Assembly (NCBI GenBank): GCA_001687465.1
Contig: LVLI01000422.1
Span: forward strand, 1 to 34,532
Direction: 5' to 3'
Source of the DNA: Halocafeteria seosinensis
Lineage: Eukaryota > Sar > Bigyra > Bicosoecida
DNA: 34,532 nt
Below the pieces are notes generated by a model. That model had not been told where the DNA came from, ran no database searches, and saw only the letters and a program-made list of their open reading frames with translations. The translations under genes and the position numbers were made by a program. Below are positions 1-34,445 of this stretch, piece after piece; the stretch's first letter is position 1; each line of letters begins with the position of its first letter.

Positions 1-163
1 TGGATAGGTGGCCTGATATCCACCCTGATCATTCACTCTGATGTGTCCGGATCCATCGTACAAAAGTCAGATGTACGATTTTCTTGGGTGGCGACCGGTT
101 CAGTTTTTTGGAGACTCTAATTCACCAATTATCATTTTATTGAAAGCAATTTCCGTGTTATTA

Positions 164-747
164 TTAAGTCGGTTGGTCAATATGGTCGGTCAGAAGAGTG
201 ACCACTTGGTCATAGGTATCCAAACCGGTTTGGTCTTTGATATCATCCAACCATTCCTTGTAACCGACTAGATTCGGATTCTCAGCATACCAACAATAGT
301 GGATAAAGCAAATCTGATGACGACCGCAACTTTGGATATCCAGATTATCTTCGTTTTGAAATGGAAAGGGGTTCGAGTAATATTGATACCTGTCAGGGTT
401 TTTTACGATTTTTTCCAACAGATACGGCCGATTCTGCCCAGTTCTTCGTTTTTCTCCGGCGACGCCCATGTCAGGGGTTCATCGGGGTATTCGCCATAAC
501 TGTCAAAGTAGATCAAATGATCGGGTTCATCCTCTTTGGGAATCCGGCATATTGAGACCCAATGGCCATAATTCTCTTCAATCAGATACAACAAAATACA
601 CGCCCCATTTTGGGTCAAGCGATCCAGTGACTTGCCATAGATTTCATTGTACGTCAGGATTGGAATGTTTTTGGTCGTGTTGTTCTGTATCTGACTCTCT
701 GACAGGGCTATCTGCTTTAGTTCCTTGATTTTTTGGCGATTCACCAT
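164..747 (-). pseudogene. Adenain-like cysteine protease, split by a -1 frameshift
   Basis: Two overlapping minus-strand frames together make one Ulp1/adenovirus-protease-like cysteine peptidase (PRO of Polintons), which in this family matures capsid proteins. The upstream frame (747 to 403, ATG at 747) carries the catalytic His (GHWVSI, H62) and acidic residue (YFDSYG, D82). The downstream frame (open to 164) carries the oxyanion Gln and nucleophile Cys (FQNED...IQSCGRHQ). The second frame is -1 relative to the first. The break falls near a run of six A on the coding strand (plus-strand T run 409-414), and the first frame reaches TAA at 403-405. A one-base loss in the homopolymer is the simplest reading; a sequencing error or recoding are alternatives. 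The N-terminal part overlaps the small membrane-protein gene by 104 nt. The family call is strong; whether the gene is functional is unresolved. Confidence 0.8.
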
Positions 748-949
748 TTTGCTCTATATTAGAATTGCCATTTTTCCGAACCTCAGTACTGAACCGGCAA
801 ATGGTGGTGACCAAATCACTGTTGGTACAACTGGATGAGCAATTGGATCGTCGCCAATACCGATAAAACAGCGGTATTCCGACGGCTGAGACACTTCCAA
901 ACAGCCCAATGAAAACATAACTGACGATCTCCATTCCTTCGTATATCAT
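644..949 (-). CDS. Small single-pass membrane protein of the Polinton element
   Basis: A 101-aa product starts at ATG 949; an upstream GTG could add two residues but is unlikely in a eukaryotic host. Residues about 8-32 form one long hydrophobic segment (IVSYVFIGLFGSVSAVGIPL) followed by basic residues (YRYWRR), a short Cys/Ser-rich stretch and a hydrophilic, polar tail. This looks like a type-III or tail-out membrane protein. It begins about 15 nt after the stop of the 578-aa gene and its tail overlaps the first 104 nt of the protease gene in another frame. Small membrane proteins of unknown role are common in Polintons and related viruses, but I recognise no family here. The hydrophobic segment and tight gene packing are the only support. 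Confidence 0.55.
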   Translation of the reverse strand: MIYEGMEIVSYVFIGLFGSVSAVGIPLFYRYWRRSNCSSSCTNSDLVTTICRFSTEVRKNGNSNIEQNGESPKNQGTKADSPVRESDTEQHDQKHSNPDVQ

Positions 950-964
950 GGACACGAAAGAAAA

Positions 965-2701
965 TTATTTCAGGCGTTTGGCCAATGATGACGTTTTACC
1001 GCCTTGCTTGTTTGGAAAATTTGGCATTGGCATCGGGGCGAAATCCGATTGAGTACCGCCCTTCTTCTTGCCTTTTTTCTTGTTCCCTTTCTTCTGCTTT
1101 TGCTTCTTGCGGAATTCTTGCTTCATCTTCTTCTTCTCCTCTGGACTGGCCAATTGAAGGGCATCAATTTCCTCTTCGCTTTGGAAGTCCTTTGAGCCGA
1201 TCCCATGGTCTTTACCGGCGTTTCCAAGATTCTTCAGGAAATCAATTCCTTTCTTGACCTCCTTGAATGGATTCTTCCCACCGCCTTGCTCTTGTTCCTC
1301 TTCGTCAGTCTTTTCTTCACCAACCTGTTGTGGTTCTTCGGCTGGTGCTTGGGCTTGACCACTCGTATCCTGTTGGGTTTGCCCTTGTTGGGATTCACCA
1401 CGAATTCGTCTGATCATTCGTTCTTTGGTCTCTCCTTTCCGTGGTTTGAGTCCCATTTGTTGGATTTTCCATATCAAATCTTGTTGATTGAACTTATTTT
1501 TGAGTTGACTGGCGTTGGCTTGTTCTTCGCCACTTTGAATACGGTTCAACAATTGCTTCTTTTGGTCGTTGGGGGAATGTTGTGACGCCTTATCTTCCCG
1601 TTCTTCTTGTTGTAATGTGGATTCGTCAATTCCCCGAAGAAGTGTTAATAATTTCCGTCTCTCTTGTTTGGATAGCCGACTCCATCGCCCCAATTGACTC
1701 AGAAACGATTCCAGACTTCCCAATTTAGCATCCACAAGGCTTTCCATGTACGCTTGTAAGGCATCATCTCTCTTTTGGTTTTGATAGGTTTCCAATAACT
1801 TCAGCACAAAGATATAAAAGATCAAAATAACCCGAATTTTGGGTATATTGCCACCGGCAAAGAGCGATGGGTTACCAATAATGCCTCGGATGGCGGATTC
1901 TAACATGGCTCGCATCTCTTCCAGATTTTTTCGCTTGATTTGGGTACCATGTTCCTCTAGCGTCCGAAGCCCATTGTTTAAGGTCTCCATACGCAGAGAA
2001 CTGAAGGAAGCGGATCCAGCACTTTCACGCCCTAGCGACGAACTGATTTCCTGTATCATCTTTTTCAGTTGAAGGACTTCGCCTCGTTTCTCGGTCAATG
2101 GCAAGGTCTTAGCAAATTGGTTGGGGTTGGACGGTTCATCAGTTTCTTCGGGGTCTTCATCCTCTTCAAATTGATCGAAGTGTTTTTGGATCATGTTTTG
2201 GAGTTGCTTTGACGGTCCCGCTCCGCCGGTTGGCGTTTTTTTTTCTCGTCCCATGATTTCGGCCACCACAGCATCAGCGGTCTCATTATTCTGTACGACG
2301 TCAAATTCTTGTTGTTGTTGCGACGCCAAGCCCTGATAGGGCTGACCAAAGGTGGCTTTCATACGATTTTCAAAATTTAAGGGTTGCTCGGGAAGGGTTT
2401 GACTGGGATGATGTTTCGGGAAGTCAAACTGACCGGCTTCGGATTGTCCCCGAAGCAGATTATATTTGGCCTGTATCAGGGGTTCATCATGGTCGGCCGT
2501 CCGATGTTTGGACGGTTCAGCGATATGCCATGTATCAAAGAGGAAGCGATACTGTCCTAAGATATTGTCACGGGTGGATTCCCCCGTATAGTCCCGCCAC
2601 GGGTCATGTGGTTGCTCTAACTGTTCGGGAGGAATGGCCGACCAACTTCGGAAATCATTGGGTTTGAGATTGAGTTTTCGTTCCATAAGTTCTCTGTCCA
2701 T
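965..2701 (-). CDS. 578-aa element protein with SAP-like motif and Lys-rich tail (possible core/virion protein)
   Basis: No family is recognised with certainty. The N-terminal third is polar and Gln/Pro-rich. Residues about 160-190 are strongly acidic. A hydrophobic stretch (RVILIFYIFVLKLLETY, about residues 287-303) sits in an otherwise helical, charged region and could be a membrane or core helix. Residues about 410-440 (LIWKIQQMGLKPRKGETKER) resemble a SAP-type DNA-binding helix pair. The C-terminus has a dense Lys tract (QKKGNKKKGKKKGG) followed by a Pro/Met/Asn patch. A basic, low-complexity tail with a DNA-binding-like motif suggests a DNA-condensing core or minor virion protein; this is inference. 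ATG at 2701 is preceded by CCATATAGAA. The gene lies 38 nt after the fibre gene and just before the membrane-protein gene, all on the minus strand. Confidence 0.75.
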   Translation of the reverse strand: MDRELMERKLNLKPNDFRSWSAIPPEQLEQPHDPWRDYTGESTRDNILGQYRFLFDTWHIAEPSKHRTADHDEPLIQAKYNLLRGQSEAGQFDFPKHHPSQTLPEQPLNFENRMKATFGQPYQGLASQQQQEFDVVQNNETADAVVAEIMGREKKTPTGGAGPSKQLQNMIQKHFDQFEEDEDPEETDEPSNPNQFAKTLPLTEKRGEVLQLKKMIQEISSSLGRESAGSASFSSLRMETLNNGLRTLEEHGTQIKRKNLEEMRAMLESAIRGIIGNPSLFAGGNIPKIRVILIFYIFVLKLLETYQNQKRDDALQAYMESLVDAKLGSLESFLSQLGRWSRLSKQERRKLLTLLRGIDESTLQQEEREDKASQHSPNDQKKQLLNRIQSGEEQANASQLKNKFNQQDLIWKIQQMGLKPRKGETKERMIRRIRGESQQGQTQQDTSGQAQAPAEEPQQVGEEKTDEEEQEQGGGKNPFKEVKKGIDFLKNLGNAGKDHGIGSKDFQSEEEIDALQLASPEEKKKMKQEFRKKQKQKKGNKKKGKKKGGTQSDFAPMPMPNFPNKQGGKTSSLAKRLK

Positions 2702-2739
2702 TTCTATATGGATGGGGCGAAAAAAAGAAATGGCGGTAT

Positions 2740-5700
2740 TTATCCTAACATCAAATAGGTAAAGGTTTCGGAAGCCCCCAAGCGGTTTTCAATGTGTAAC
2801 TGGGATGAGCCGGTTGAGACAGTGATTTTGCCGTCTGTACCGGTCGTCCCTGAAGGCGTTTGATTGATGGCCGTTTCAAACATTGTACTCCGAAGTACAT
2901 TGGTTTGGGAAATATTATCCCCTGAAACATTGTACAGTATTTCTAACATAGCCCCATTAGAACTAGTGGTTCGGATAAGAAACTTACCCACTTGATGGGT
3001 TGGTGTTAAGGAATGGAAGGAATCGTCATTAATGGTCACGGCATTGGATGTCACCGTGGCGACGCCCACTAAAGTGTGACTGTTCATTTCCACGTTGGAT
3101 TGAGCCGGAAGCGAATACCACCCAAAACGCTGAAAATCATTGGTACCAACGCCGTTGTGATACAAGTATTTGATTTCATCGGCCGATAAAACACGATTCC
3201 AAGTAGCCACCTCATCCAATTCTCCACTGCTTGCTATGGAATCTCCCAAGTTACGTCCCAACGAACTTGTATCCGATCCGGATGAGACGTTACCTCCGCT
3301 TAATGAGGCGTCTATATCCAGACTGCCGTCAATATAAAGTTTCCAATCCGACCCTGTTCTTGTCAAAAGCACATGATGGTACGTGTTAAGGGATAAGGCT
3401 GAAGAAGCATTGGATGCCTCTGCGTTTCCGTTTGTTCTTGTACCTATTCTCAGTATATCGGCCTGCATCTTTAATTCAAACTTATCTCCATTGGAATCCT
3501 TCGCCGAAGCGTAGAGAAACTGGTCTGTGGGTGAATCAGTGGTGGGAAAAAACCAACAGGAAACAGTCAAATCACCTGAGCCAAACGACAAAGCATCACC
3601 GATATCCACATGATCCGACGCCGTGAAAGCAATCGCTTGACCAATCTTACCGGAGACAACCGATGTTCCATTATTTGTCCCATCATGCGTTCCGATGGAA
3701 TCGGCATAGGAATCCGTTCCATCAAATGAATAATAGGCTCTACCCCCACGCCGAAGTTGGGGAATTCCGGCCAATGAGTCGGTATAATTCTTGGTCACGG
3801 CATCGGTACTTTGCGTCGGTGTCCCAACATTCGCCAACCGATGGCTATTCATATTGACGGTGGATTGAGCCGGTCGACTATACCAATCAAAGGTGGCAAA
3901 GTCTTGCGTCCCGTTGCCTCCGTTGTACAGATAACGAATTTCCTCAGGGGATAAGACACGATTCCAGATGCCAAATTCATCAATTCGGTAGCCATTTGCC
4001 ATTGGGTTTCCCAAATCATTGCTAATTGTTGATGTAGAACCGGTCATTGTAGCATCATTGAATATTGCTCCTGATGAATCTTGCGAACCATTCACATAGA
4101 TTGTTCCAGTTGTCCCTTGTCCAGTCATAACAATATGATACCATGTGTTTTGTGACAATGTTGATGATTGGACTTCCTTTTTTGAACCCCCTGATTCCGT
4201 ATAGATTCGGATATAATCACCGCTTTCTTGTGTAATCAGCAATCTATTGCTTGAATCAACTTGACTGATCATCATCATTTGCCCTGAATTTTTATGTTTT
4301 ACATACACCCAAAAACTAAATGAAAAGTCACTTCCGGCCACGTTTAAGGCTGATGACGGGAGTGACACATACGATGTCGTACCATCAAATTCTAGAGAAT
4401 CACCTATTTTTCCACCGCTAGAAATAGTAATATTACCGTTGGCTGTTCCATCATACGTTCCAATGGAATCTTCATAATTCCCATCAAAACTGTAATAGGC
4501 TCTTGCCCCACGACGCATTTGGGGGATTCCGGCCAACGCATCCGTATAACTCTTGGTGACCGCATCGGCGGACGCTGAGGGTTCGCCCAGAGAAACGATA
4601 CGGTGAGAATCCATATTCACGTTGCTTTGGGCGGGACGGCTGTACCAATCAAAGGACTGGAAATCATTGGTGGCATTTCCATTGTGGTACAAGTATTTGA
4701 TTTCAGCCAGAGACAATACACGACTCCAAGCCCCCACTTCATCCAATCTAGCATGGGTTGCTCCCCCATCAAATCCAATTGTTCCACTGTTTGCTGTGGT
4801 AATTGATCCGGATTGTACCGACCCACTGGCTTCCAAGATACCATCCACATAAATTTGAGCCGTTCCACCGGTACTAGTGACAACGATATAATACCACTGA
4901 TTCAATGTACTAAACGCAGACGATGTGGAAAGGTTGGTGGTTGAACCATCGTCGGTAAAAAATGTAATTTTTGAATTACTTGATTGATGGTAGATTGAGA
5001 ATTGATTGGATGACGATCCTTGATGAATGAAAGTTTGATTGCTTGACAATTGGGTTGGATAATACCATACAGAAATGGAAAAATCACCCGTGCCGAAATC
5101 AAAAGCATTTCCGACTTTGACGTGTTCCGTTCCGGCCAAATCAAGAGCGTCGCCTATTTTTCCGCTAGAGGTGGTGGTGGCATTATTATTCGTCCCATCA
5201 TGTGTTCCAATGCTATCTTCGTAAGGATTAGATCCATCAAAACTGTAATAGGCTCTCGCTGACCGTCGCATTTGTGGAATTCCCGCCAAAGCGTTGGTAT
5301 ATTGACGTAGTTGTGTGACTTCGCCCTTGGTGGCTAGGTAGGTGTCTTGCCAATTGTTTGTGCCGTTGCCATTGTTATAGAGGAAAGTAATTTCATCTTG
5401 GGTGAGAACACGATCCCAAATACCTACTTCATCAACAAGCACATTTTTAGCATTTCCAGCGGTTGATCCAATTCGACCTGTAGTCGTGTCGCCAATATCA
5501 CCACTTGCTACCGTGCCCGAATTTTCCAACGCTCCATTGACATATATTTCACCTGACGAACCAGAACGGGTGAAAACAACATAATGCCATTGGTTGGTGG
5601 AATATGTGTTGCTTGTTTCAAAACTAACTTGGGAACTATCCCACGTAAAAAACCGAAATTTGTTAGATGTACTAGTTCCATATTGTAAATGTGTCAGATT

Positions 5701-6249
5701 TCCAGACGACAGCCCATTCATAACAAATGTAACACCATCTTCTTTGGGGTAAATCCACAGACCAACAGTAAAATCACCGGTCGTCCAGCCTAAAGCATCA
5801 CCGACATCAACGTAGGTGTCATTGCCCTGTGTGTCAAACGCATCGGCAATCTTACCTGATGAAATTGTCCCACTACCAACCAACAAACCATCATATTGTC
5901 CTACGGAATCAGCATACCGATTGTTGGAATCATCAAAACTATAGTATGCCCGTCCCCCACGTCTCAATTGGGGCACAGCAACCTGTGTGTCAATATACCC
6001 CTTTGTGGTTGCATCGGATGAACTTGTCGGGGTTGCTACGTTGATTATTCGGTTTGAATCGGCATTAATGTTAGTTGTTGCCGGTGTCTCCGCCCAACGA
6101 TTCTCCAAACGATTGCTGTTATCAAAACTGAAGCCGTTTGAAGCGGTTTTGACATCAATATGGCTATTGCCCGATGCACCCAGACCTTTTCTGAGATCCA
6201 AAGTAGCCTGAATACCCCTGCTTGTCCGTACAAACATTCCGGTTGACAT
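2740..6249 (-). CDS. Fibre-like protein with four LamG/concanavalin A-like lectin modules
   Basis: A 1169-aa protein built from four tandem modules, each opening with AYYSFD and closing with a DE(V/F)(A/G).W.RVL..(E/D)I..LY.(N/G)G signature, typical of LamG/Laminin_G_3 jelly-roll domains. Module starts on the plus strand lie near 5945, 5250, 4500 and 3740, a period of about 700-760 nt. Three linkers repeat (VNM(D/N)SHR(I/L)...DAVTK.YTD.LAGIPQ(M/L)RRG), resembling phage and giant-virus tail-fibre repeats; a related linker (NADSNRI...DATTKGYIDTQV) lies near the N-terminus. The last roughly 110 residues form a separate beta-rich end domain. No signal peptide or membrane helix is seen. This architecture points to a virion surface fibre or receptor-binding protein that recognises glycans; function is inferred. 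ATG 6249 is preceded by ACTATATATC. The modules differ enough in sequence that assembly collapse is unlikely. Confidence 0.88.
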   Translation of the reverse strand: MSTGMFVRTSRGIQATLDLRKGLGASGNSHIDVKTASNGFSFDNSNRLENRWAETPATTNINADSNRIINVATPTSSSDATTKGYIDTQVAVPQLRRGGRAYYSFDDSNNRYADSVGQYDGLLVGSGTISSGKIADAFDTQGNDTYVDVGDALGWTTGDFTVGLWIYPKEDGVTFVMNGLSSGNLTHLQYGTSTSNKFRFFTWDSSQVSFETSNTYSTNQWHYVVFTRSGSSGEIYVNGALENSGTVASGDIGDTTTGRIGSTAGNAKNVLVDEVGIWDRVLTQDEITFLYNNGNGTNNWQDTYLATKGEVTQLRQYTNALAGIPQMRRSARAYYSFDGSNPYEDSIGTHDGTNNNATTTSSGKIGDALDLAGTEHVKVGNAFDFGTGDFSISVWYYPTQLSSNQTFIHQGSSSNQFSIYHQSSNSKITFFTDDGSTTNLSTSSAFSTLNQWYYIVVTSTGGTAQIYVDGILEASGSVQSGSITTANSGTIGFDGGATHARLDEVGAWSRVLSLAEIKYLYHNGNATNDFQSFDWYSRPAQSNVNMDSHRIVSLGEPSASADAVTKSYTDALAGIPQMRRGARAYYSFDGNYEDSIGTYDGTANGNITISSGGKIGDSLEFDGTTSYVSLPSSALNVAGSDFSFSFWVYVKHKNSGQMMMISQVDSSNRLLITQESGDYIRIYTESGGSKKEVQSSTLSQNTWYHIVMTGQGTTGTIYVNGSQDSSGAIFNDATMTGSTSTISNDLGNPMANGYRIDEFGIWNRVLSPEEIRYLYNGGNGTQDFATFDWYSRPAQSTVNMNSHRLANVGTPTQSTDAVTKNYTDSLAGIPQLRRGGRAYYSFDGTDSYADSIGTHDGTNNGTSVVSGKIGQAIAFTASDHVDIGDALSFGSGDLTVSCWFFPTTDSPTDQFLYASAKDSNGDKFELKMQADILRIGTRTNGNAEASNASSALSLNTYHHVLLTRTGSDWKLYIDGSLDIDASLSGGNVSSGSDTSSLGRNLGDSIASSGELDEVATWNRVLSADEIKYLYHNGVGTNDFQRFGWYSLPAQSNVEMNSHTLVGVATVTSNAVTINDDSFHSLTPTHQVGKFLIRTTSSNGAMLEILYNVSGDNISQTNVLRSTMFETAINQTPSGTTGTDGKITVSTGSSQLHIENRLGASETFTYLMLG

Positions 6250-6260
6250 GATATATAGTC
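6250..6260 (-). promoter_or_regulatory. TATATA-type motif directly upstream of the fibre gene
   Basis: The minus strand reads GACTATATATC immediately before the ATG. A similar TATAT block lies directly before the PolB ATG, a TAATAT block before the integrase ATG, and CATATAGAA before the 578-aa gene. This may be an element-specific promoter or initiator, or simply an AT-rich start context. Confidence 0.3.
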
Positions 6261-6453
6261 TGTTTGAATCTTTGAGCGAAAAGATTCAAAGTCAAATCTT
6301 TCTAATTACGGTCGTTGTCTGAAAATGGGACTCCGATCTGCTGTCCCAACACCTCTGGTCTTTGGTAAGTTTTTGAAATTGCGACTAAACGATTTCAGAC
6401 CGCCATTAATGGTAATTACGGTTCGCTGTGCTTTTGGTCTAGGCTTGACGATT

Positions 6454-6756
6454 CTAACACTTGGCATATATTCTATTACTCAATTCTTTAAAATTATCCG
6501 CATCAAAATATTCTTCTATGTTGGCTAAACATTGCTTTACATTACGTTTTTCCATAACACAAGCGTTTATTGCTTTTGCTATAATAGCATAATCTTTTTT
6601 TATTGCTGACCATGATGGTTTGGGTAAGGAATAAATAAAACTTTGACGATCAAATGTAATAAACATTTCATAGCCACCTGTATTTAAATTATGACCAACT
6701 CCTGTGATAATGCCTTCTAATCCCAACTCAAATACTTCAGGTAAATTGCTCTGCAT
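6454..6756 (-). CDS. Hypothetical 100-aa element protein
   Basis: An uninterrupted 100-aa frame from ATG 6756 lies in the gap between the divergent fibre and PolB genes. It has a mixed alpha/beta composition with a Gly-rich N-terminal part (ELGLEGIITGVGHNLNTGGY), an aromatic/Pro stretch (SLPKPSWSAIKKDY) and an amphipathic helical C-terminal half containing two Cys (ACVMEKRNVKQCLANIEEYF). No signal peptide or membrane segment is visible and no family is recognised. The ATG is preceded by AT-rich TTATTTATTAAT, as for other genes of the element. Being the only gene between the two divergent blocks, it could be an early or regulatory gene, but nothing in the sequence proves this. Confidence 0.5.
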   Translation of the reverse strand: MQSNLPEVFELGLEGIITGVGHNLNTGGYEMFITFDRQSFIYSLPKPSWSAIKKDYAIIAKAINACVMEKRNVKQCLANIEEYFDADNFKELSNRIYAKC

Positions 6757-6854
6757 ATTAATAAATAAGCAAAGTCAATCATTTTTCTGGGGTGGGTAAA
6801 AAGAGAGTTGGGTAAAAACCAAAAAGAAAAAATGAATGAAACTAACATCAACTA

Positions 6855-6863
6855 ATCATATAT
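6855..6863 (+). promoter_or_regulatory. TATATA-type motif directly upstream of PolB
   Basis: ATCATATAT abuts the PolB ATG. It follows an A-rich tract and two GGGTAAAAA-type repeats (about 6795-6820). It matches the AT-rich context before the fibre, integrase and 578-aa genes. A role as promoter core is inferred. Confidence 0.3.
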
Positions 6864-9800
6864 ATGTCCGCCAACAAAACCAATCGACAGAAATTGAGGG
6901 AACTCCAGCAAAACGCTAAACCGCTTCGTCAAATGGGATTGATCAGTCGACCGCTTAATAAATTTACCCGACAGCAACTTCAACAAACCATCCAAAGCGT
7001 TGAACCGACCTTCAAACGGCTTCAGTTTGATGAACGAAAGTTCTTGAAGACCGCCACCAATAACGAAATTCGTCAAAAGCATCGACAATTTTTGCTTCAT
7101 GGCCTGTCAAGCCCCAAAACCCGCAAAATCAAAGACATCAAGCAATCGTTAATTCAAAACTATCCGACCTTCCGCCAAATGAACCGCAATAACATCAATA
7201 TTGAAAACATGAACCGCCAACAACTCCAAAACCAATTGCGTGAGTTACGGGAACAGGGATTTGCCGTGGGGAAACTGAACCGAAGCAATTTCCAACTTCG
7301 GCAAGAGATTGTTCAAATTTCGCTTCAAAATCAAGGAAACAGAGGACAAGCCCCTGTGGCTACTGATGAGCAACATCTGCAACCGCAAGTGGTTGATGTC
7401 TCTCAAATGAGTCGCTTTCTCTTTAGTTATAAGATAACCACTGAACCGCAAACCGCCGATTTTATTCTCTTTTCCAACGCTGTTTGGGACACCATGCGGA
7501 AAACACTAGAGCAACATTTCCAAGAAATGAATCTGAAGGTACAAATGGCTGTGTTAGCCTCTTTCTATCGTGCGTCCGACCCTGATGTCCAAATGGAAGG
7601 CCGATTTACCTCGTCCGAAAATGGTCAAACAGCCATTGCCATCATTCAAGGCAATCAAATTGAAAACACGATCGCCGAATTGATTAGTCGGATTGAAAAT
7701 ATGCTAGAACGACATCAAAACAGTGCCAGTGATTGGGTTATCATGTCGGTCAATGCTCTATTTCTGAATATTAGTGAATTTGAACCCTTGCGTGGGGCGT
7801 GTGCCGAGCACAAACTACCGAGATGCTTCAAAAATCGGGGTGTCCTTCAGTTGAGCGGTGGCACAGAGGGCGAATGTGGGTTATGGTCTATATTGGCCGG
7901 TCTTCATTATCATGAAATAACCGACAGAAAAAACATTGGACGTGTTAGCAAATACAAAACCTATCGGGAGGAACTCCATCTGGGACATGCAAAACCACGG
8001 CAAATTGACCAAGAAGTCTTTGGCGAAACGGTATCCACCCGCAAGGGACGAGTGGTTGAATTACCCATTTCAGTCCAAGACTTGGAAACCATTGAACAAT
8101 TAAACCCATGGCTAAGTCTGAATGCCTATACCGTTGAACTGGACTGTGAGCAAACAAGAATTAAAGAATCCCGCATCTTGCGTTCGGTTCGTCCGGCCGA
8201 CCATCATGTCAATCTGTTGCTGTTCCATGGTCATTGGTATCCCATCGTGGATTTTAACCGATTCCTTGGTTCTAATGGTTATGCCAAAGAGTTTTGCTTC
8301 CACTGTCTGCAAGGATTTCATACGACGTGGGCAAATCAAACAACATCACGGCGTCCAACCAAGACCGCCAAAGAAAAATTGGCCGAACATCATCAAATGG
8401 GATGCTATGACAATGAAGGGGCGAAACCAATCCTTCCCAAGAAGGGGGAACACTACTTAAAATTTACCAACTTCCACTGTCAATTGAAACTTCCGGTAAC
8501 TGTCTACTGTGATCTGGAAAGTTCTTTAGTTCCTATTGAAGAGAACAAAGGACAAAGCCAATTGCAATACGAGCATGAGCCCAATTCCATTTGTGCCCGA
8601 GTCGTTTCCGACGCATTTCCGGAATTGACACAAACCAAAGTCTTTTACGACACGAAGGAAATGTGGTGTATCAGTTCCTTTATGTACTGGTTAATTGATC
8701 TGGAAGAACAAGTGGGTCACCGTATTCAATCAAGATATGTGGCTCTGCAAATGACAGACGATGATGAAATAACATTTCGGAATGCCGAATCCTGTCATGC
8801 TTGTGGGGGCACATTGGGAAACGACCGTGTTCGTGACCATGATCATTTTACGGGTACGTTTCGGGGAGCATGTCATTCCAATTGTAATCTCCAAAAACAT
8901 TTTCATCGTAAATGGAAAATGCCCGTCATCTTCCACAACTTAAAGGGGTACGATTCACATTTTTTAATTGATGAAGTTGCCCGTGTGGGTCAGATTCGAC
9001 GGAAAAAGTTGAATGCCATTCCACAAAATGCCGAAAAATTCATCAGTTTTTCTCTAGACAGGATTTGTTTTATTGATTCCCTCAGTTTCATGAGTAGCAG
9101 TCTAAGTGCTTTGGTTGAAAATCTGAAGATGAAAGGGGTGGATCAAACCGTATTCCAAAATCTCTATGCTGAGTTCGGGGACTATCCGCAAGAATCCATT
9201 GATTTAGTTGTTCAAAAGGGTGTTTATCCGTATGCTTACATGGACGGTGATCCTGAACGAATGGATCTAGCGGAATTGCCGTCACGGGAACAATTTTATG
9301 ACCCATTGAGCGAAAGTCATATAGAGGAAGAGGACTATCAACATGCTCAACGAGTCTGGGATCAATTTGATTGTCAAACCTTCCGTGATTACCACGAACT
9401 TTACCTCAAAGGCGATGTCTTGTTACTGGCGGATATCTTTGAAAATTTCCGAGACCTCTGTCTAAGTAACTATCACCTTGATCCTTGCTGGTTTTACGGA
9501 GCACCCGGATTGTCGTGGGATGCCTTCCTGTTGAACATTCAGAATCAGTATTCCTTGGAACTGTTCCATCGTGATCAGTACGACATGTTGCTATTTGCGG
9601 AGCGATGTAAACGGGGTGGTATCAGCATGATAAGTCACAGGTTTGCCAAAGCCAATAACCCGTATCTGTCCAACGATAAATATGACGCAAACAAAGAAAC
9701 TAGTTATATCGTCTATTACGATTGTTCCAACCTCTATGGATGGGCAATGAAACAGAATTTGCCGGTGGGCGGGTTCTATTGGCGAGATGACTTGGACACA

Positions 9801-10994
9801 TTTGACGAAGAATTCTTTCGCCAACTTAACCCTGAAGCAGATGAAGAGGGTTATTTTGTGGAAGCCGACCTAGAATATCCGGAAGAACTTCACGATCTGC
9901 ATAATGACTATCCCCTTGCGGTCGAGAATACAACAGGGAAATATTCGCCTTATATGCAACAACAGGCTAGTAATATGGGATTGGAAACAAAACAGAACGA
10001 CATCAAGTTAGTTCCCACCTTGAATGACAAGGAAGGTTATGTCTGCCACAGTGCCAATTTAAAACTATACTTGGAACTGGGGTTGCGTTTAAAACGGGTT
10101 CGGCGAGTTCTAGCATTTCAACAAGCCCCTCTCATGCGAAGTTACATTGATAAGAATACCGAACTCAGGAAAAAAGCACGTGACGATTTTGAAAAAGACC
10201 TATTCAAACTGATGAACAACTCAGTCTTTGGAAAAACTATGGAGAATGTACGGGGCTATAGCAACGTAAGTTTTTGCAAGAACCGGAAAGAGTTTCTCAA
10301 GTGTACCTCTAAGCCGACGTTCCGTGGATTTACCATCATCAATCAAGATCTAGTGGCGGTGGATAACAATAAGGAATTTATCAAATTCAACAAACCCATA
10401 TTCTTGGGGGCATCCATCTTGGACATATCCAAGACCATTATGTACGAATATCACTATAACTATATCAAAACGAAGTACGGCAATGACGCTCAGTTGTTAT
10501 TCACCGACACCGACAGTTTGGCCTACCACATCAAAACAGACGATGTCTATCGTGACATGGCGGACGAAAAATGGCGATTTGATTTGTCTGACTATCCTTC
10601 CGATCACTTTCTGCATGACAAGACCAACAAGAAAGTCGTCGGGACATTCAAGGATGAGAGTGCCGGTGAGCCGATCTACCAATTTGCGGGATTACGTGCC
10701 AAAATGTATAGCATACTGATGAATAGCGATGTGGAAGAGTCCAAGGCAAAAGGTATCCCAAAAGCCGTCCTTAAGAAACAACTCCAACACACCGATTACC
10801 TTCGGGCTTTGGTCTTGCGAACCCAACCGGATCGTTTGGAATTCAATAGCATCAACAGTTTCCTGCATCGGGTGGTTAGTTGCCGTGAAAAGAAACAAGG
10901 CTTAAGCCCACTTGATGATAAGAAGTATGTTCTTGACAACGGCATTACCACGTTGGCACATGGGCATTGGCGGATCAAAAATCAAGAAGACTAA
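6864..10994 (+). CDS. polB: Protein-primed family B DNA polymerase (Polinton type)
   Basis: A 1376-aa replicative polymerase of the DNA_pol_B_2 (protein-primed, viral/organellar) family that would copy the linear element from its termini. Order of parts: residues 1-160 basic helical repeats with SAP-like motifs; about 335 the conserved GECGLWSILAGLHYHE block with RVSKY downstream; about 475-520 a zinc-finger-like region (FCFHCLQGF...H..GC); Exo I VYCDLESS (about 546); a four-Cys/His endonuclease VII-like zinc insertion CHACGGTLGNDRVRDHDHFT (about 644); Exo II FHNLKGYDSHF (about 690); Exo III region YLKGDVLLLAD (about 848); motif A VYYDCSNLYGWAM (about 951); motif B KLMNNSVFGKTMENVR (about 1119); motif C FTDTDSLAYH (about 1215). 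All catalytic acids are present, so the gene looks intact. Its TAA is followed, in the same frame, by TAT and the integrase ATG. Confidence 0.96.
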   Translation: MSANKTNRQKLRELQQNAKPLRQMGLISRPLNKFTRQQLQQTIQSVEPTFKRLQFDERKFLKTATNNEIRQKHRQFLLHGLSSPKTRKIKDIKQSLIQNYPTFRQMNRNNINIENMNRQQLQNQLRELREQGFAVGKLNRSNFQLRQEIVQISLQNQGNRGQAPVATDEQHLQPQVVDVSQMSRFLFSYKITTEPQTADFILFSNAVWDTMRKTLEQHFQEMNLKVQMAVLASFYRASDPDVQMEGRFTSSENGQTAIAIIQGNQIENTIAELISRIENMLERHQNSASDWVIMSVNALFLNISEFEPLRGACAEHKLPRCFKNRGVLQLSGGTEGECGLWSILAGLHYHEITDRKNIGRVSKYKTYREELHLGHAKPRQIDQEVFGETVSTRKGRVVELPISVQDLETIEQLNPWLSLNAYTVELDCEQTRIKESRILRSVRPADHHVNLLLFHGHWYPIVDFNRFLGSNGYAKEFCFHCLQGFHTTWANQTTSRRPTKTAKEKLAEHHQMGCYDNEGAKPILPKKGEHYLKFTNFHCQLKLPVTVYCDLESSLVPIEENKGQSQLQYEHEPNSICARVVSDAFPELTQTKVFYDTKEMWCISSFMYWLIDLEEQVGHRIQSRYVALQMTDDDEITFRNAESCHACGGTLGNDRVRDHDHFTGTFRGACHSNCNLQKHFHRKWKMPVIFHNLKGYDSHFLIDEVARVGQIRRKKLNAIPQNAEKFISFSLDRICFIDSLSFMSSSLSALVENLKMKGVDQTVFQNLYAEFGDYPQESIDLVVQKGVYPYAYMDGDPERMDLAELPSREQFYDPLSESHIEEEDYQHAQRVWDQFDCQTFRDYHELYLKGDVLLLADIFENFRDLCLSNYHLDPCWFYGAPGLSWDAFLLNIQNQYSLELFHRDQYDMLLFAERCKRGGISMISHRFAKANNPYLSNDKYDANKETSYIVYYDCSNLYGWAMKQNLPVGGFYWRDDLDTFDEEFFRQLNPEADEEGYFVEADLEYPEELHDLHNDYPLAVENTTGKYSPYMQQQASNMGLETKQNDIKLVPTLNDKEGYVCHSANLKLYLELGLRLKRVRRVLAFQQAPLMRSYIDKNTELRKKARDDFEKDLFKLMNNSVFGKTMENVRGYSNVSFCKNRKEFLKCTSKPTFRGFTIINQDLVAVDNNKEFIKFNKPIFLGASILDISKTIMYEYHYNYIKTKYGNDAQLLFTDTDSLAYHIKTDDVYRDMADEKWRFDLSDYPSDHFLHDKTNKKVVGTFKDESAGEPIYQFAGLRAKMYSILMNSDVEESKAKGIPKAVLKKQLQHTDYLRALVLRTQPDRLEFNSINSFLHRVVSCREKKQGLSPLDDKKYVLDNGITTLAHGHWRIKNQED

Positions 10995-10997
10995 TAT

Positions 10998-11969
10998 ATG
11001 AGTGATTTAACACGGGCAAATCGTGAAGTTGGGCGTCAGAAACAACAGCCCCGCAAACGTCGGCGTGTCATTTCCGGTGGGGCGGATCACATTTTTACGG
11101 CCGACATTGTCGATATGTCTCAATTTGCTCGGTGGAACAAAAAGAATGGCAAACAGATGAAGTTTATCCTGTTCATCTTAGAACTTTATTCCCGTTTTGC
11201 ATGGGGCATTCCCATTCCCAATAAAAACGCCACCGTTATGAAACAGACTTTGGATGACTTCTTTAAAAAATTGCCGAAAAAGCGTGTTCCCGAATTGATG
11301 TGGACAGACCGTGGGGCTGAATTTACAGCACCAAGAGTCAAGCAAGTCTTTGACAAATGGGACATCAAACTCTATCATACCTTTGGGGAACATAAAGGGG
11401 TTGTCATTGAACGATTGAATCGCACCATTGGTAACCGGATTCGTCAGCAATTGGAAGGGAAACAGAACAAAAAATGGTTGGATTTATTGGATCAGGAAGT
11501 AAAAGAGTATAACAATAGCGAACATCGTACCATTCAGGCCAAACCGGTTGATGTCTATAAAGCTAATGCGACACCCGCTCCTCATCAGTTTGTTCATGGG
11601 AAGGACTATACGGCGACACGACCCAAACTGAAAGTTGGGGATCGGGTACGAATTGCTCGAACCAAGGGGACATTTGAACGTGGGTTTGATGCCAATTGGA
11701 CAAGGGAACTATTCACGGTTCAGAAAGTGTTGAAGACCAATCCAGTGACGTACAAACTGAAGGATGAAAGTGGTGATATTTTAGAGGGTTTATTCTATCA
11801 AAGTGAGCTGCAAAAGACTGAGTTGACTGATGAGGGTGAATTTGCCATTGAGAAAGTGGTACGACGATTTAAGCGGAATGGCAAAAACATGGCTGAAGTA
11901 AAATGGCTTGGAATGCCCAACAGCCAAAATAGTATCATACCAGCAAGTCGGGTACGTAATCTGAAATAA
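10998..11969 (+). CDS. Retroviral-type DDE integrase with SH3-like and chromodomain-like C-terminus
   Basis: A 323-aa rve-family integrase that would join the element's ends to host DNA. The N-terminus is basic (RQKQQPRKRRR, a likely nuclear signal) and lacks an obvious HHCC zinc finger. The catalytic core shows D36 (TADIVDM), D104 (WTDRGAEF) and E138 (VVIERLNR), with 33 residues between the second Asp and the Glu. Residues about 208-272 (KVGDRVRI...FTVQKVLKTNPVTYKLKD) match the SH3-like integrase C-terminal domain. Residues 282-323 (FAIEKVVRRFKRNGKNMAEV, then KWLGMP) fit a chromodomain fold, although the methyl-lysine cage looks incomplete (F, W, Met). The ATG lies three bases after the PolB stop and in the same frame, so translation is probably coupled or an internal promoter is used. 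A minisatellite starts 28 nt after the stop. Confidence 0.94.
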   Translation: MSDLTRANREVGRQKQQPRKRRRVISGGADHIFTADIVDMSQFARWNKKNGKQMKFILFILELYSRFAWGIPIPNKNATVMKQTLDDFFKKLPKKRVPELMWTDRGAEFTAPRVKQVFDKWDIKLYHTFGEHKGVVIERLNRTIGNRIRQQLEGKQNKKWLDLLDQEVKEYNNSEHRTIQAKPVDVYKANATPAPHQFVHGKDYTATRPKLKVGDRVRIARTKGTFERGFDANWTRELFTVQKVLKTNPVTYKLKDESGDILEGLFYQSELQKTELTDEGEFAIEKVVRRFKRNGKNMAEVKWLGMPNSQNSIIPASRVRNLK

Positions 11970-11997
11970 ACGCTAATTTGTTTCATTGTTGGTGTGG

Positions 11998-12300
11998 CTA
12001 CTTCGGTACTTCAGGGGTGAAGTAGTAAAGTAGTAAAGTACTCAAACAATCTTTTCACAAACTACTTCGGTACTTCAGGGGTGAAGTAGTAAAGTAGTAA
12101 AGTACTCCAACAATCTTTTCACAAACTACTTCGGTACTTCAGGGGTGAAGTAGTAAAGTAGTAAAGTAGTTAGTCCAACAATCTTTTCGCAAACTACTTC
12201 GGTACTTCAGGGGTAAAGTAGTAAAGTAGTAAAGTACTCCAACAATCTTTTCGCAAACTACTTCGGTACTTCAGGGGTGAAGTAGTAAAGTAGTAAAGTA
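11998..12300 (+). repeat. Minisatellite, five units of about 64 bp
   Basis: Units start at 11998, 12062, 12126, 12194 and 12258 (steps 64, 64, 68, 64). Each begins CTACTTCGGTACTTCAGGGG and continues TGAAGTAGTAAAGTAGTAAA, then a CAATCTTTTC-A/G-CAAA spacer. Each unit holds an inverted repeat (CTACTTC...GAAGTAG) and could fold into a hairpin. The copies are nearly identical. Diverged echoes of the ACAATCTTTTC spacer continue to about 12400. It lies just downstream of the integrase gene and could be 3' UTR or a structural spacer. Confidence 0.9.
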
Positions 12301-12416
12301 ACTCACTACCGCAGTACCGCAGAGGTGCTGTAGTCCGGTAGTCCTGTAGAACCGAACAATCTCTTCTTCGACTCGGTTTGAACCGAACAATCTTTTCTTT
12401 GGCACTGCCAAAAAGC

Positions 12417-12498
12417 CCCACTGAGCCGGATTCGAACCCACGTCTTTCGAAGTACGAGGGTCTTTCAGTACTCACGCCGATGGTGTCGGCTTGAGTGA
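12417..12498 (-). tRNA. tRNA-like sequence (degenerate; amino acid not assignable)
   Basis: On the minus strand a perfect B-box (GGTTCGAATCC) lies in a T-arm with 4 of 5 pairs. The putative acceptor strands TCACTCA and TCAGTGG pair at 6 of 7 positions (one G-T wobble). A perfect 4-bp D-type stem (CCGA/TCGG) follows. A T5 tract directly after the 3' end would serve as an RNA polymerase III terminator. The anticodon arm does not form a proper 5-bp stem with a 7-nt loop, so no isotype is given. It may be a tRNA pseudogene, a pol III promoter remnant or a tRNA-derived short element captured by the Polinton. Confidence 0.35.
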
Positions 12499-12606
12499 CT
12501 CAACTATCAAGGGAGGGTTAAAAGTAATATCTATAGTTGTGACGCTTATGTCGCAGACCAAAAGACCGAATCAATAAAAATGACTGGGAATTGATGTCCC
12601 AATCCA

Positions 12607-13104
12607 ATGCCCAAGAAAAAGAAGGAAGCCCCAAAAGAATGGAAGCCTATTGCCGGATATGAAGATTCCTACCAAATATCAAACCGTGGTGAAGTGTGGT
12701 CGGATCACGAAAACAGAACTCTAAATCCGTGGTCTCAATACGGCAAACGGCGAATGGTTTACTTGTACAAAAATGGAAACAGAAGAAGAATGACTATCGA
12801 TGATCTTGTCTTTTTTTCCTTCCATCCTCAGGCCTTTGACTACTATTATACTGGTCACCCAATACATAAAGATGGACGTTTTCAAAACGATCACATTGAT
12901 AATCTTGATCCACCTGAGTGGAAACAAACTCTGCCAACATCTGATAGATTCGGACGATTAATACAAGGAAAATGTAGCATGTGTAAAAAGGAAGTACCTG
13001 AAACGCATTTTGACCACCATTACCAAAACGATTCAAATTGTTTGATCTGGCAACAAAAACATGATTACGTATTAAAAAATAGACCGCCATGGACATATTC
13101 ATAA
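12607..13104 (+). CDS. NUMOD4-HNH homing endonuclease-like protein
   Basis: A 165-aa protein. Residues 1-10 are Lys-rich (PKKKKEAPKE, nuclear-signal-like). Residues about 11-35 (EWKPIAGYEDSYQISNRGEV) are a clear NUMOD4 DNA-binding motif. An HNH_3-like segment follows (HPIHKDGRFQNDHIDNLDPP, about 92-111), with the Asp-His-Ile-Asp core in place of the usual NHIDGN. The C-terminal part has Cys pairs and His (CSMCKKEVPETHFDHH) that may bind zinc. Such proteins are free-standing homing endonucleases of viruses and introns that nick or cut DNA. Catalytic competence is uncertain because the first HNH His is not obvious. It is the last gene inside the element, on the same strand as PolB and integrase. 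Confidence 0.78.
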   Translation: MPKKKKEAPKEWKPIAGYEDSYQISNRGEVWSDHENRTLNPWSQYGKRRMVYLYKNGNRRRMTIDDLVFFSFHPQAFDYYYTGHPIHKDGRFQNDHIDNLDPPEWKQTLPTSDRFGRLIQGKCSMCKKEVPETHFDHHYQNDSNCLIWQQKHDYVLKNRPPWTYS

Positions 13105-13471
13105 AACTACGATCCAATCTATCAAATTCACTTGACGTCGTTCGCCGGACGGCTGCAAACCGGCACATCCGTTTGTCGAACCCCCGTGAGACACGGTCGT
13201 GTAGGGGTCAATTTGTGGAATTCGGGTGAGGTTCTCTAGTGGGTATATCGTCGGGTTTGGCGGTCGGGTTCGGTTGAGTGAGGAATCCCTTTGCGTATTT
13301 CGTCTGAATATTTCGTTGGAATATGCGGTCGTATAGCGGTATTTTGGTGAAACAGATAGGTGACGTTGTAGGGGGTATATCGTCGGGTTTTGCGGTCGGG
13401 TGAGGCAGGGTGAGGTTTCACTCTGGTTTGACGCACGAACACTTACTATTGCTACTTTCAGTGACAGTAAG
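13105..13471. other. Probable right terminal region of the Polinton, with a duplicated 29-bp motif
   Basis: This stretch has no credible gene and differs in composition from the coding part (rich in CGG/GGGT). A 29-bp motif beginning GGGTATATCGTCGGGTTT occurs at 13241-13269 and 13373-13401 with one mismatch. Near the right edge ACTTACT (13441-13447) and AGTAAGT (13466-13472) form a short inverted repeat. Host LRR coding sequence begins at about 13472. I infer the terminal inverted repeat and element end lie here, but the left end is outside the window, so no TIR match or target duplication can be shown. Confidence 0.4.
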
Positions 13472-33654: not shown

Positions 33655-34445
33655 TAGGAAGATGGAATTCCCGAGCCAACCTCCCGGAATTCAATCTACT
33701 CCACAACACCTAGACACCAAACCATATGTTTCCACACCGTATCCGACCATATTATGATGTAATAATGTATTTGGATTCCAAATAACCATCCAAATAAGTC
33801 TGCAAAGAGTACTTTGGTAACGACACTGAATACACGGATGGGAAGTGGAGTTTCACTGGGTTACCAGCCAGCCTTCCGGAATTCAATCTACTCCACTACC
33901 TAGACACCGAACCATACGTTTACACACCGTATCCTACCATATTATGATGCAATAATGTATTTGGATTCCAAATACTTCATCCAAATAGGTCTGCAAAGAG
34001 TGCTTTGGTAACGATACTTAATACACGGATGCTAAGTGGAGTTCCACTGGGCTACAAGTTAGCCTCCGGGAATTCAATCTACTCCACTACCTAGACACCG
34101 AACCATACGTTTACACACCGTATCCTACCATATTATGATGCAATAATGTATTTGGATTCCAAATACTTCATCCAAATAGGTCTGCAAAGAGTGCTTTGGT
34201 AACGATATTTAATACACGGATGCTAAGTGGAGTTCCACTGGGCTACAAGTTAGCCTCCGGGGATTCAATCTACTCCACTACCTACACACCAAAGCATACG
34301 TTTCCACATTATATCCGACCATATTACGATGTAATAATGTATGTGGATTCCACATACACCATTTAAATAGGTCTGCAAAGAGTGCTTGGTAAACTATACT
34401 GAATACACGAATGCAAAGTGGGATTCCAGTGGGGTACTTCAGTGT
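33655..34445. repeat. Tandem satellite, about 4 units of 191-192 bp
   Basis: Units begin at the GGAATTCAATCTACTCCAC anchor near 33686, 33878, 34069 and 34261 (steps 191-192), with a partial unit before the first. Units 2 and 3 are nearly identical; units 1 and 4 are more diverged. Each unit contains an odd palindrome, GTATTTGGATTCCAAATAC in units 2 and 3. Unit 4 has GTATGTGGATTCCACATAC, with both arms changed in a matching way. No coding potential is seen. It may be a local satellite or part of a larger array beyond the window. Confidence 0.88.

What the first reader, a model, noticed from the sequence alone, without database searches (positions are those of the whole stretch)
1..13471. Polinton/Maverick-type virus-like element in a probable diatom genome
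Protein-primed PolB, rve integrase and an adenain-like protease together define Polintons. Here they sit with a four-module lectin fibre, a SAP-like basic protein and a NUMOD4-HNH gene, next to intron-rich host genes. The minus-strand virion-type block and plus-strand replication/integration block diverge from one centre. Capsid and ATPase genes are not in view and may lie to the left.
Basis: partly seen in the sequence, partly recalled or inferred. Interest (0 to 1): 0.75.

Follow-up and report, generated by a model that had tools for sequence, protein, structure and literature searches.

The report
Mosaic Polinton-like provirus in a protist
The first 13.5 kb of this contig is one end of a virus-like mobile element (Polinton/Maverick type) sitting in a eukaryotic chromosome, and its attachment-fibre region looks spliced together from two different element lineages of the same genome; it is a known kind of element in a host that is probably not a diatom.

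Summary
Window 1-13456 is the right-hand part of an integrated Polinton-like virus, cut on the left by the contig start. It carries a polymerase-B-like gene, an rve integrase, a laminin-G fibre, an HNH gene, a protease split by a frame change, and a right terminal repeat. Ends of this type show 6-bp target duplications: 4 matching pairs among 105 pairs of 15 ends, about 0.026 expected. One pair places the other flank of this insertion on contig C334, whose element part carries capsid-type, ATPase, VLTF3-like and methylase genes. Open frames and dN/dS of 0.06-0.10 between copies mean recent selection.

New here: window 1 to about 5250 mostly matches a second resident lineage ("B"), and about 5250-13456 the lineage of the polymerase ("A"). 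The seam lies inside the fibre gene, which has an A-type anchor and a B-type tip. Recombination explains this best. An assembly chimera is not excluded, since no other contig with this seam was seen.

"Diatom" is not supported: no silicon-transporter or chlorophyll-binding match was found, though no diatom control was run. Laminin-G fibres in such viruses are published. Verdict: a new member of a known kind, with an interesting mosaic.

The parts
164..469 (-). Protease, second piece (101 aa from its ATG), in another frame than the first piece and overlapping it. The relative on C190 has one open frame of 194 aa with a weak Peptidase_C48 (Ulp1-type) match.
403..747 (-). Protease, first piece (114 aa). 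The gene is split by a frame change in this copy; pieces were searched apart and reach no protease family on their own.
644..949 (-). Small frame (101 aa) with one hydrophobic stretch (read by eye); lineage-B type.
965..2701 (-). 578-aa protein of unknown function with a lysine-rich tail; lineage-B type (C190 has a 584-aa relative).
2740..6249 (-). Fibre protein, 1169 aa: N-terminal anchor of lineage-A type, four Laminin_G_3 stretches, C-terminal tip of lineage-B type.
5185..5301 (.). Most likely seam: B-type similarity (C321) runs up to 5301, A-type similarity (C15) begins at 5185. From 5401 to about 6000 none of the copies compared is close. A smaller A-like patch lies at 3301-3750.
6454..6756 (-). 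100-aa frame of unknown function.
6864..10994 (+). 1376-aa DNA-polymerase-B-like protein with an internal region weakly like endonuclease VII.
10998..11969 (+). 323-aa rve integrase with a C-terminal chromodomain match below cut-off; it starts 3 nt after the polymerase frame ends.
11998..12300 (.). Minisatellite of a 64-bp unit, 4.7 copies; C15 and C147 have different arrays behind the integrase.
12607..13104 (+). NUMOD4/HNH homing-endonuclease-like gene (165 aa).
13179..13456 (+). Right terminal repeat; its likely inverted partner is on C334, ending at C334:9574.
13457..13462 (.). 6-bp host target-site duplication, reverse-complement identical to the flank on C334.

Best explanation
Window 1-13456 is the right part of an integrated Polinton-like virus, at least 23 kb long if the pairing with C334 holds. 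Inferred life cycle: its own polymerase copies a linear genome, the rve integrase inserts it with a 6-bp duplication, and morphogenesis genes on the paired contig (capsid-type, penton-like, packaging ATPase, VLTF3-like factor) let particles form, with the laminin-G fibre binding surface sugars. Shown here: genes, terminal repeats, 6-bp duplications, and purifying selection on polymerase and integrase. Inferred: particles, receptor binding, current mobility. The copy is a mosaic. Its backbone (fibre anchor, polymerase, integrase, terminal repeat, and the capsid block if C334 belongs to it) is lineage A. The fibre tip, the 578-aa gene, the membrane frame and the protease are lineage B, most likely brought in by homologous recombination at the repeated laminin-G domains. 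The protease is split in this copy.
For: rve at 2.3e-09 (above cut-off) and four Laminin_G_3 stretches. The polymerase relatives match EndoVII in 5 of 5 and DNA_pol_B_2 (5.6e-20) in 1 of 5. Of 16 ends read, 15 had the terminus; 4 of their 105 pairs have reverse-complement identical 6-base flanks (about 0.026 expected with equal base frequencies; 0 in the same-orientation control). C334 carries the C-terminal part of the capsid-type protein and ATPase, VLTF3-like and Eco57I-type genes, with capsid, 508/556-aa, ATPase and VLTF3-like genes in the same order as on C147. dN/dS against C15 and C147 is 0.060 and 0.098 (polymerase), 0.063 and 0.078 (integrase). Mosaic: of 90 pieces of 150 nt compared with two A and four B contigs, those from 1 to 3000 match B only or nothing, those from 4051 to 5250 match B (one also A, weakly), and those from 5251 onwards match A only or nothing. 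The fibre start matches 3 A fibres at 62-70% from residue 1, while B matches begin at residue 47 or later; the fibre end matches the four B fibres at 95, 92, 72 and 40%, and 2 of 4 A pieces at 31-33%.
Against: The window holds only one end. The pairing with C334 rests on a 6-mer, an identical terminal stretch and a 95.6% repeat match, lower than the 99.3% of the two other cross-contig pairs; the pairs were first noticed by eye, so one search was not blind. The window's own polymerase frame reaches no polymerase model, and its EndoVII match is below the curated cut-off; polymerase and capsid profiles find no solved structure beyond chance. No relative was confirmed in viral contigs or phage records. 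The mosaic is not a clean two-part one: at 3301-3750 A is the better match. No other contig with the seam was seen, so an assembly chimera at the laminin-G repeats stays possible. A third, distant lineage on C71 carries protease, a 578-like piece and another polymerase together, so a protease beside a polymerase is not in itself foreign.
Confidence: 0.77

Rival explanations
1. The element is real, but the A/B mosaic is an assembly artefact: two elements of different lineages were merged at the laminin-G repeats.
For: The seam lies in repeated sequence with copies 696-765 bp apart. C15, C395 and C482 end inside element sequence, so the assembly breaks in these repeats. Among the contigs of the 22 protease rows and 22 polymerase rows no other was seen with this seam, though most of them were not read in full.
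Against: The fibre frame stays open over 1169 aa across the seam. The B part is its own version, not a copy of one B contig: patches of 70-99% to different B contigs. The stretch 5401 to about 6000 is close to none of the copies compared.
Confidence: 0.3
2. Nested or adjacent insertion: a lineage-B element, or a piece of one, was inserted beside the fibre gene of an A element.
For: A nested or adjacent end was seen elsewhere (C538, terminus 164 bp before sequence like the polymerase upstream region).
Against: The terminal-repeat search gave no row in C293 other than the right end (a lower bound), and the switch falls inside one open fibre frame.
Confidence: 0.05
3. The element is a dead relic, or has been taken over by the host for its own use.
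For: The protease is split; the left end is unseen.
Against: Polymerase, integrase, fibre and 578-aa frames are open; dN/dS is low between copies at three places; target duplications are exact, also round a 2,504-base non-autonomous copy at C75.
Confidence: 0.1

Closest known systems
Polinton/Maverick elements and Polinton-like viruses of protists (PMC12220804 and PMC10120064, passages seen)
   Same: PMC12220804 passages: PolB, rve integrase, terminal repeats of hundreds of bases, 5-6 bp target duplications, fibres with arrays of up to seven laminin_G_3 domains, and replacement of replication genes by recombination. PMC10120064 passages: many capsid-gene copies and several types in one protist genome.
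   Different: Here the fibre joins the anchor of one resident lineage to the tip of another, and the polymerase has a region like endonuclease VII and lies 3 nt from the integrase. Whether published elements share these details was not checked beyond the passages read.
Oxyrrhis marina PLVs (PMC12721341, passages seen)
   Same: Endogenous, with terminal inverted repeats and an enlarged PolB protein.
   Different: There no rve integrase and no target duplications were found, and PolB is fused to a helicase.
Mavirus-type virophages (recalled, not compared)
   Same: rve integrase, PolB, cysteine protease, integrated state.
   Different: Capsid relationship and dependence on a giant virus were not tested.

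Membership tests
Polinton/Maverick (Polinton-like virus) | Protein-primed B-family DNA polymerase | tested here: inconclusive
   DNA_pol_B_2 at 5.6e-20 in 1 of 5 relatives, not in the window's own frame. Polymerase-like motifs in the alignment are recognised from memory. Protein priming is not testable here.
Polinton/Maverick (Polinton-like virus) | Retroviral-type (rve) integrase | tested here: met
   PF00665 at 2.3e-09, 37.8 bits against a cut-off of 32.6.
Polinton/Maverick (Polinton-like virus) | Terminal inverted repeats of hundreds of bases | tested here: met
   278 bp at window 13179-13456 with a likely partner on C334 (95.6% over 274 columns); C75 has both repeats on one contig, inverted, 97.6% over 327 columns.
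Polinton/Maverick (Polinton-like virus) | 6-bp target-site duplication | tested here: met
   4 of 105 pairs of ends match, about 0.026 expected; only the C75 pair lies on one contig.
Polinton/Maverick (Polinton-like virus) | Packaging ATPase | tested here: met
   Not in the window; on the paired contig C334, PF04665 Pox_A32 24.6 bits against a cut-off of 22.8.
Polinton/Maverick (Polinton-like virus) | Double jelly-roll major capsid protein | tested here: inconclusive
   A 470-aa candidate on C147 has 17 other rows in the genome, one on C334, but no Pfam match, and its profile finds only a chance-level lectin among solved structures (E 0.43). Named from gene order and memory; the fold was not predicted.
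Polinton/Maverick (Polinton-like virus) | Adenain/Ulp1-type maturation protease | tested here: inconclusive
   The window's two pieces reach no such family and piece 1 no solved structure (best E 0.17). The open relative on C190 matches Peptidase_C48 at E 0.0027, 18.0 bits, below the cut-off of 20.7.
Integrated element of a diatom | Host has silicon transporters and a photosynthetic antenna family | tested here: not met
   PF03842 and PF00504: 0 matches; control PF01026: 8 rows. No diatom was searched as a control; rRNA searches failed.

The most novel reading that the evidence does not exclude
Distantly related Polinton-like lineages living in one genome trade the receptor-binding half of their fibres by recombination at laminin-G repeats. 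The N-terminal anchor stays with its own capsid lineage, while the sugar-binding tip and the genes behind it move across: a natural change of binding specificity recorded in a provirus.
Probability: 0.5. Interest if true: 0.6.

Novelty: new member of a known kind. Interest (0 to 1): 0.42.

Why it matters
The genome offers a view of such viruses evolving as co-resident lineages: insertions marked by target duplications, a non-autonomous copy, and a fibre gene that appears to have changed its tip while keeping its anchor. If reads confirm the seam, it would show how Polinton-like viruses may change what they bind, as phages and adenoviruses are known to do with their fibres (recalled, and titles seen in the listing).

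Tried and rejected
Diatom host: two marker families gave no match (control). Oomycete: elicitin gave 0 matches, but its control rang nowhere, so it says nothing. Host rRNA: two searches failed on the machine. The host is left open: by its genes a eukaryote, 30.6-Mb assembly, no photosynthesis marker found.

Relatives outside the genome: polymerase and capsid alignments and one capsid protein against viral contigs, and the polymerase against phage records, gave no confirmed match. The viral-contig scans rest on 2 to 6 short peptide patterns each and are weak negatives.

Protease piece 1 against solved structures: 9 rows up to E 10, best 0.17, no use.

Start-codon motif: an A-lineage TATATG motif suspected from the frames was not borne out (0 of 30 A-lineage stretches). 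TATAGA is within 40 bases upstream of 7 of 13 B genes (control mean 0.21, 0 of 1000 random sets reached it), 5 of 9 C55 genes (0.82, 0 of 1000) and 1 of 30 A genes (0.51, 387 of 1000). It was chosen after looking, and the B set holds three homologous pairs (window and C190), so it is a lead only. One search stopped with a script error after printing; two of its rows (a wrongly placed start on L029, a start at a locus edge on L044) were dropped.

C103 as one complete 11.5-kb element: rejected, because its left terminus pairs with C482 and not with its own right terminus.

C71 carries a distant protease (183 aa, 44% to piece 1), a 578-like piece (32%) and a different 1255-aa polymerase frame (29-31% in two short stretches): a third lineage. 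The B assignment of the window's left part rests on DNA identity, not on the presence of the gene.

Full report
WHAT IS THERE. The window is the whole contig C293 of a 30.6-Mb, 605-contig assembly. Its left 13,456 bases are one end of a virus-like element. On the minus strand lie, from right to left, a 100-aa frame (6454-6756), a fibre gene of 1169 aa (2740-6249), a 578-aa gene (965-2701), a small frame with a hydrophobic stretch (644-949) and a protease in two overlapping frames (403-747 and 164-469). On the plus strand lie a 1376-aa polymerase-like gene (6864-10994), an integrase (10998-11969) and an HNH gene (12607-13104). Pfam gives rve at 2.3e-09 for the integrase, four Laminin_G_3 stretches for the fibre, NUMOD4 above its cut-off for the HNH gene, and for the polymerase frame only Endonuclease_7, below its cut-off. 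Of five polymerase relatives from this genome scanned at E up to 10, the window's included, 5 match Endonuclease_7 and 1 matches DNA_pol_B_2 at 5.6e-20. I read the protein as a B-family polymerase with an EndoVII-like insert; its catalytic motifs are recognised from memory in the alignment.

ENDS AND INTEGRATION. Similarity to the C15 copy stops at a terminus ending CTACT. A search with window 13150-13451 found 21 rows on 15 contigs. I read 16 ends on 14 of these contigs; the short C161 row was not fetched, and C296 lacks the terminus and was dropped. Among the other 15 ends, 4 of 105 pairs have reverse-complement identical 6-base flanks, where about 0.026 are expected; none match in the control orientation. 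The pairs had first been noticed by eye. One pair, C75, lies on a single contig: a 2,504-base non-autonomous element with inverted repeats 97.6% alike and two small genes. The others link contigs: C293 with C334, C147 with C395, C103 with C482. So the other flank of this insertion is most likely on C334, where the terminus is at 9574 and element-type genes reach back to base 1. Repeat identity is 95.6% for C293/C334 and 99.3% for the two other cross-contig pairs, these measured on 137-144 bases only. That speaks against the C293/C334 pairing, or for older or exchanged ends.

THE OTHER PART. C334 begins inside a capsid-type gene (74% to residues 252-470 of the C147 candidate), followed by a 508-aa gene, an ATPase, a VLTF3-like gene and a 268-aa gene that I call penton-like from memory, then on the other strand small genes, an HNH gene and an Eco57I-type methylase. 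The order capsid, 508/556-aa gene, ATPase, VLTF3-like agrees with C147, which has a GIY-YIG gene between the second and third. C147 also carries a lipase-like gene, three fibre-like genes with an HNH gene among them, and a second, inverted element copy whose polymerase frame covers residues 1-355 only. The two parts were compared as they stand and were not joined.

COPIES, AGE AND STATE. The polymerase query gave 22 rows; six, with the window, are near full length without a stop: 100, 98, 95, 46, 46 and 42%. The integrase gave 31 rows: 13 near full length without a stop at 34-100%, counting the window, and a second family of 11 rows on 10 contigs at 28-30%. The capsid gave 18 rows, the protease piece 22. 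Between the window and its two near copies, dS is 0.18-0.26 and dN/dS 0.060-0.098 for polymerase and integrase. The copies diverged while these proteins were under selection. The only broken gene that I saw in the window is the protease; 20 of the 21 other protease rows carry no stop in the matched part.

TWO LINEAGES, AND A THIRD. Lineage B, read mainly on C190, has a 388-aa integrase with rve and a chromodomain above their cut-offs, a gene weakly like a hydrolase, a piece with a weak DUF5906 match that I read as helicase-like, a 1583-aa fibre, a 584-aa gene, a membrane frame and the protease. The protease query hits 5 of the 10 contigs with an integrase row of the second family (C92, C190, C318, C321, C448). 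It has no row on C147, C55 or C334, and its one row on C15 lies about 70 kb from the C15 element. A third lineage on C71 combines a distant protease, a 578-like piece and another polymerase of 1255 aa.

THE MOSAIC. Pieces of 150 bases were compared with two A contigs (C15, C147) and four B contigs (C190, C321, C448, C76). From 1 to 3000 only B contigs match, up to 99%, with four weak or empty pieces in 1351-1950. The piece at 3001 matches neither. From 3151 to 3750 both match, and A is the better in identity from 3301. From 3751 to 5250 B is the better. The piece at 5251 matches A only (89%); from 5401 to about 6000 nothing is close; from 6001 A alone matches, with empty pieces at 6451-6750 and 12001-12600. 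A separate DNA search shows six contigs matching across the junction of the 578-aa gene and the fibre end, up to window 3065-3068 (C448, C76, C493, C597, C605, C321); three of these (C448, C76, C321) also carry the protease, the other three were not read. In the fibre, the first 50 or so residues match A fibres only; the last 110 match B fibres at 95% (C448), 92% (C76), 72% (C321) and 40% (C190), and A pieces at 31-33% in 2 of 4. The fibre thus has an A anchor, laminin-G domains of mixed origin and a B tip, and the genes behind the tip are B-type. The simplest cause is recombination at the laminin-G repeats between lineages that share a genome. The main rival is an assembly chimera at the same repeats; I put it at 0.3.

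HOW IT WORKS. Best reading: a Polinton-like virus that replicates with its own polymerase, inserts with its integrase and builds particles with the capsid block. The fibre's laminin-G domains would bind sugars of the host surface. Replication, packaging and binding are inferred from families. PMC12220804 (passages) describes laminin_G_3 arrays in PLV fibres, 6-bp duplications with rve integrases, and replacement of replication genes, so the parts are known. In the searches made (listings; passages of three papers) I saw no report of a fibre joined from two resident PLV lineages. This is a narrow search and no proof of novelty.

HOST. No silicon transporter and no chlorophyll-binding protein was found; the method did find a family known to be in the window. 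The host is, by its genes, a eukaryote that I could not name. 'Diatom' should be dropped as a label unless rRNA says otherwise.

VERDICT. A sound observation, an ordinary kind of element, a host label that the evidence does not support, and one feature worth a follow-up: the fibre seam.

Noticed in passing
window 33680-34437: Four tandem copies of a 191-bp unit near the right contig end, perhaps a host satellite.
   Followed up: no
L013 (G000:C147:25000-34999) and L015: A second element copy in inverted orientation beside the first, with only residues 1-355 of the polymerase and no terminal-repeat row found between the two copies; rearrangement or misassembly.
   Followed up: partly
L019 (G000:C75), 471-2974: A 2,504-base non-autonomous element with both inverted repeats and an exact 6-bp target duplication, carrying two small genes.
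   Followed up: yes
L017/L018 (G000:C103:50665-62149): Two termini 11.5 kb apart on one contig with different end types and no shared target duplication; the left one pairs with C482 instead.
   Followed up: partly
L022 (G000:C538:20450): A terminus lies 164 bp before sequence like the upstream region of a polymerase gene: one element inserted in or beside another.
   Followed up: partly
window 11998-12300; L009 3477-3708; L013 1984-2184: Different minisatellites (64-, 86- and 23-bp units) behind the integrase gene in three copies.
   Followed up: partly
upstream of lineage-B genes (L044, L045, window 747, 949, 2701) and C55 genes (L038, L039): TATAGA within 40 bases of the start codon in 7 of 13 B and 5 of 9 C55 genes but 1 of 30 A genes; perhaps a lineage-specific promoter, chosen after looking.
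   Followed up: partly
L012 4444-5886 (C147 fibre) against window 2740-6249: Fibres with the same A-type anchor carry either a pectate-lyase-like beta-helix or laminin-G domains, another sign of exchangeable tips.
   Followed up: partly
L050 (G000:C71:58500-66500): A third element lineage: distant protease, 578-like piece, two GIY-YIG-like genes (by eye) and a 1255-aa polymerase frame with little likeness to the window's.
   Followed up: partly
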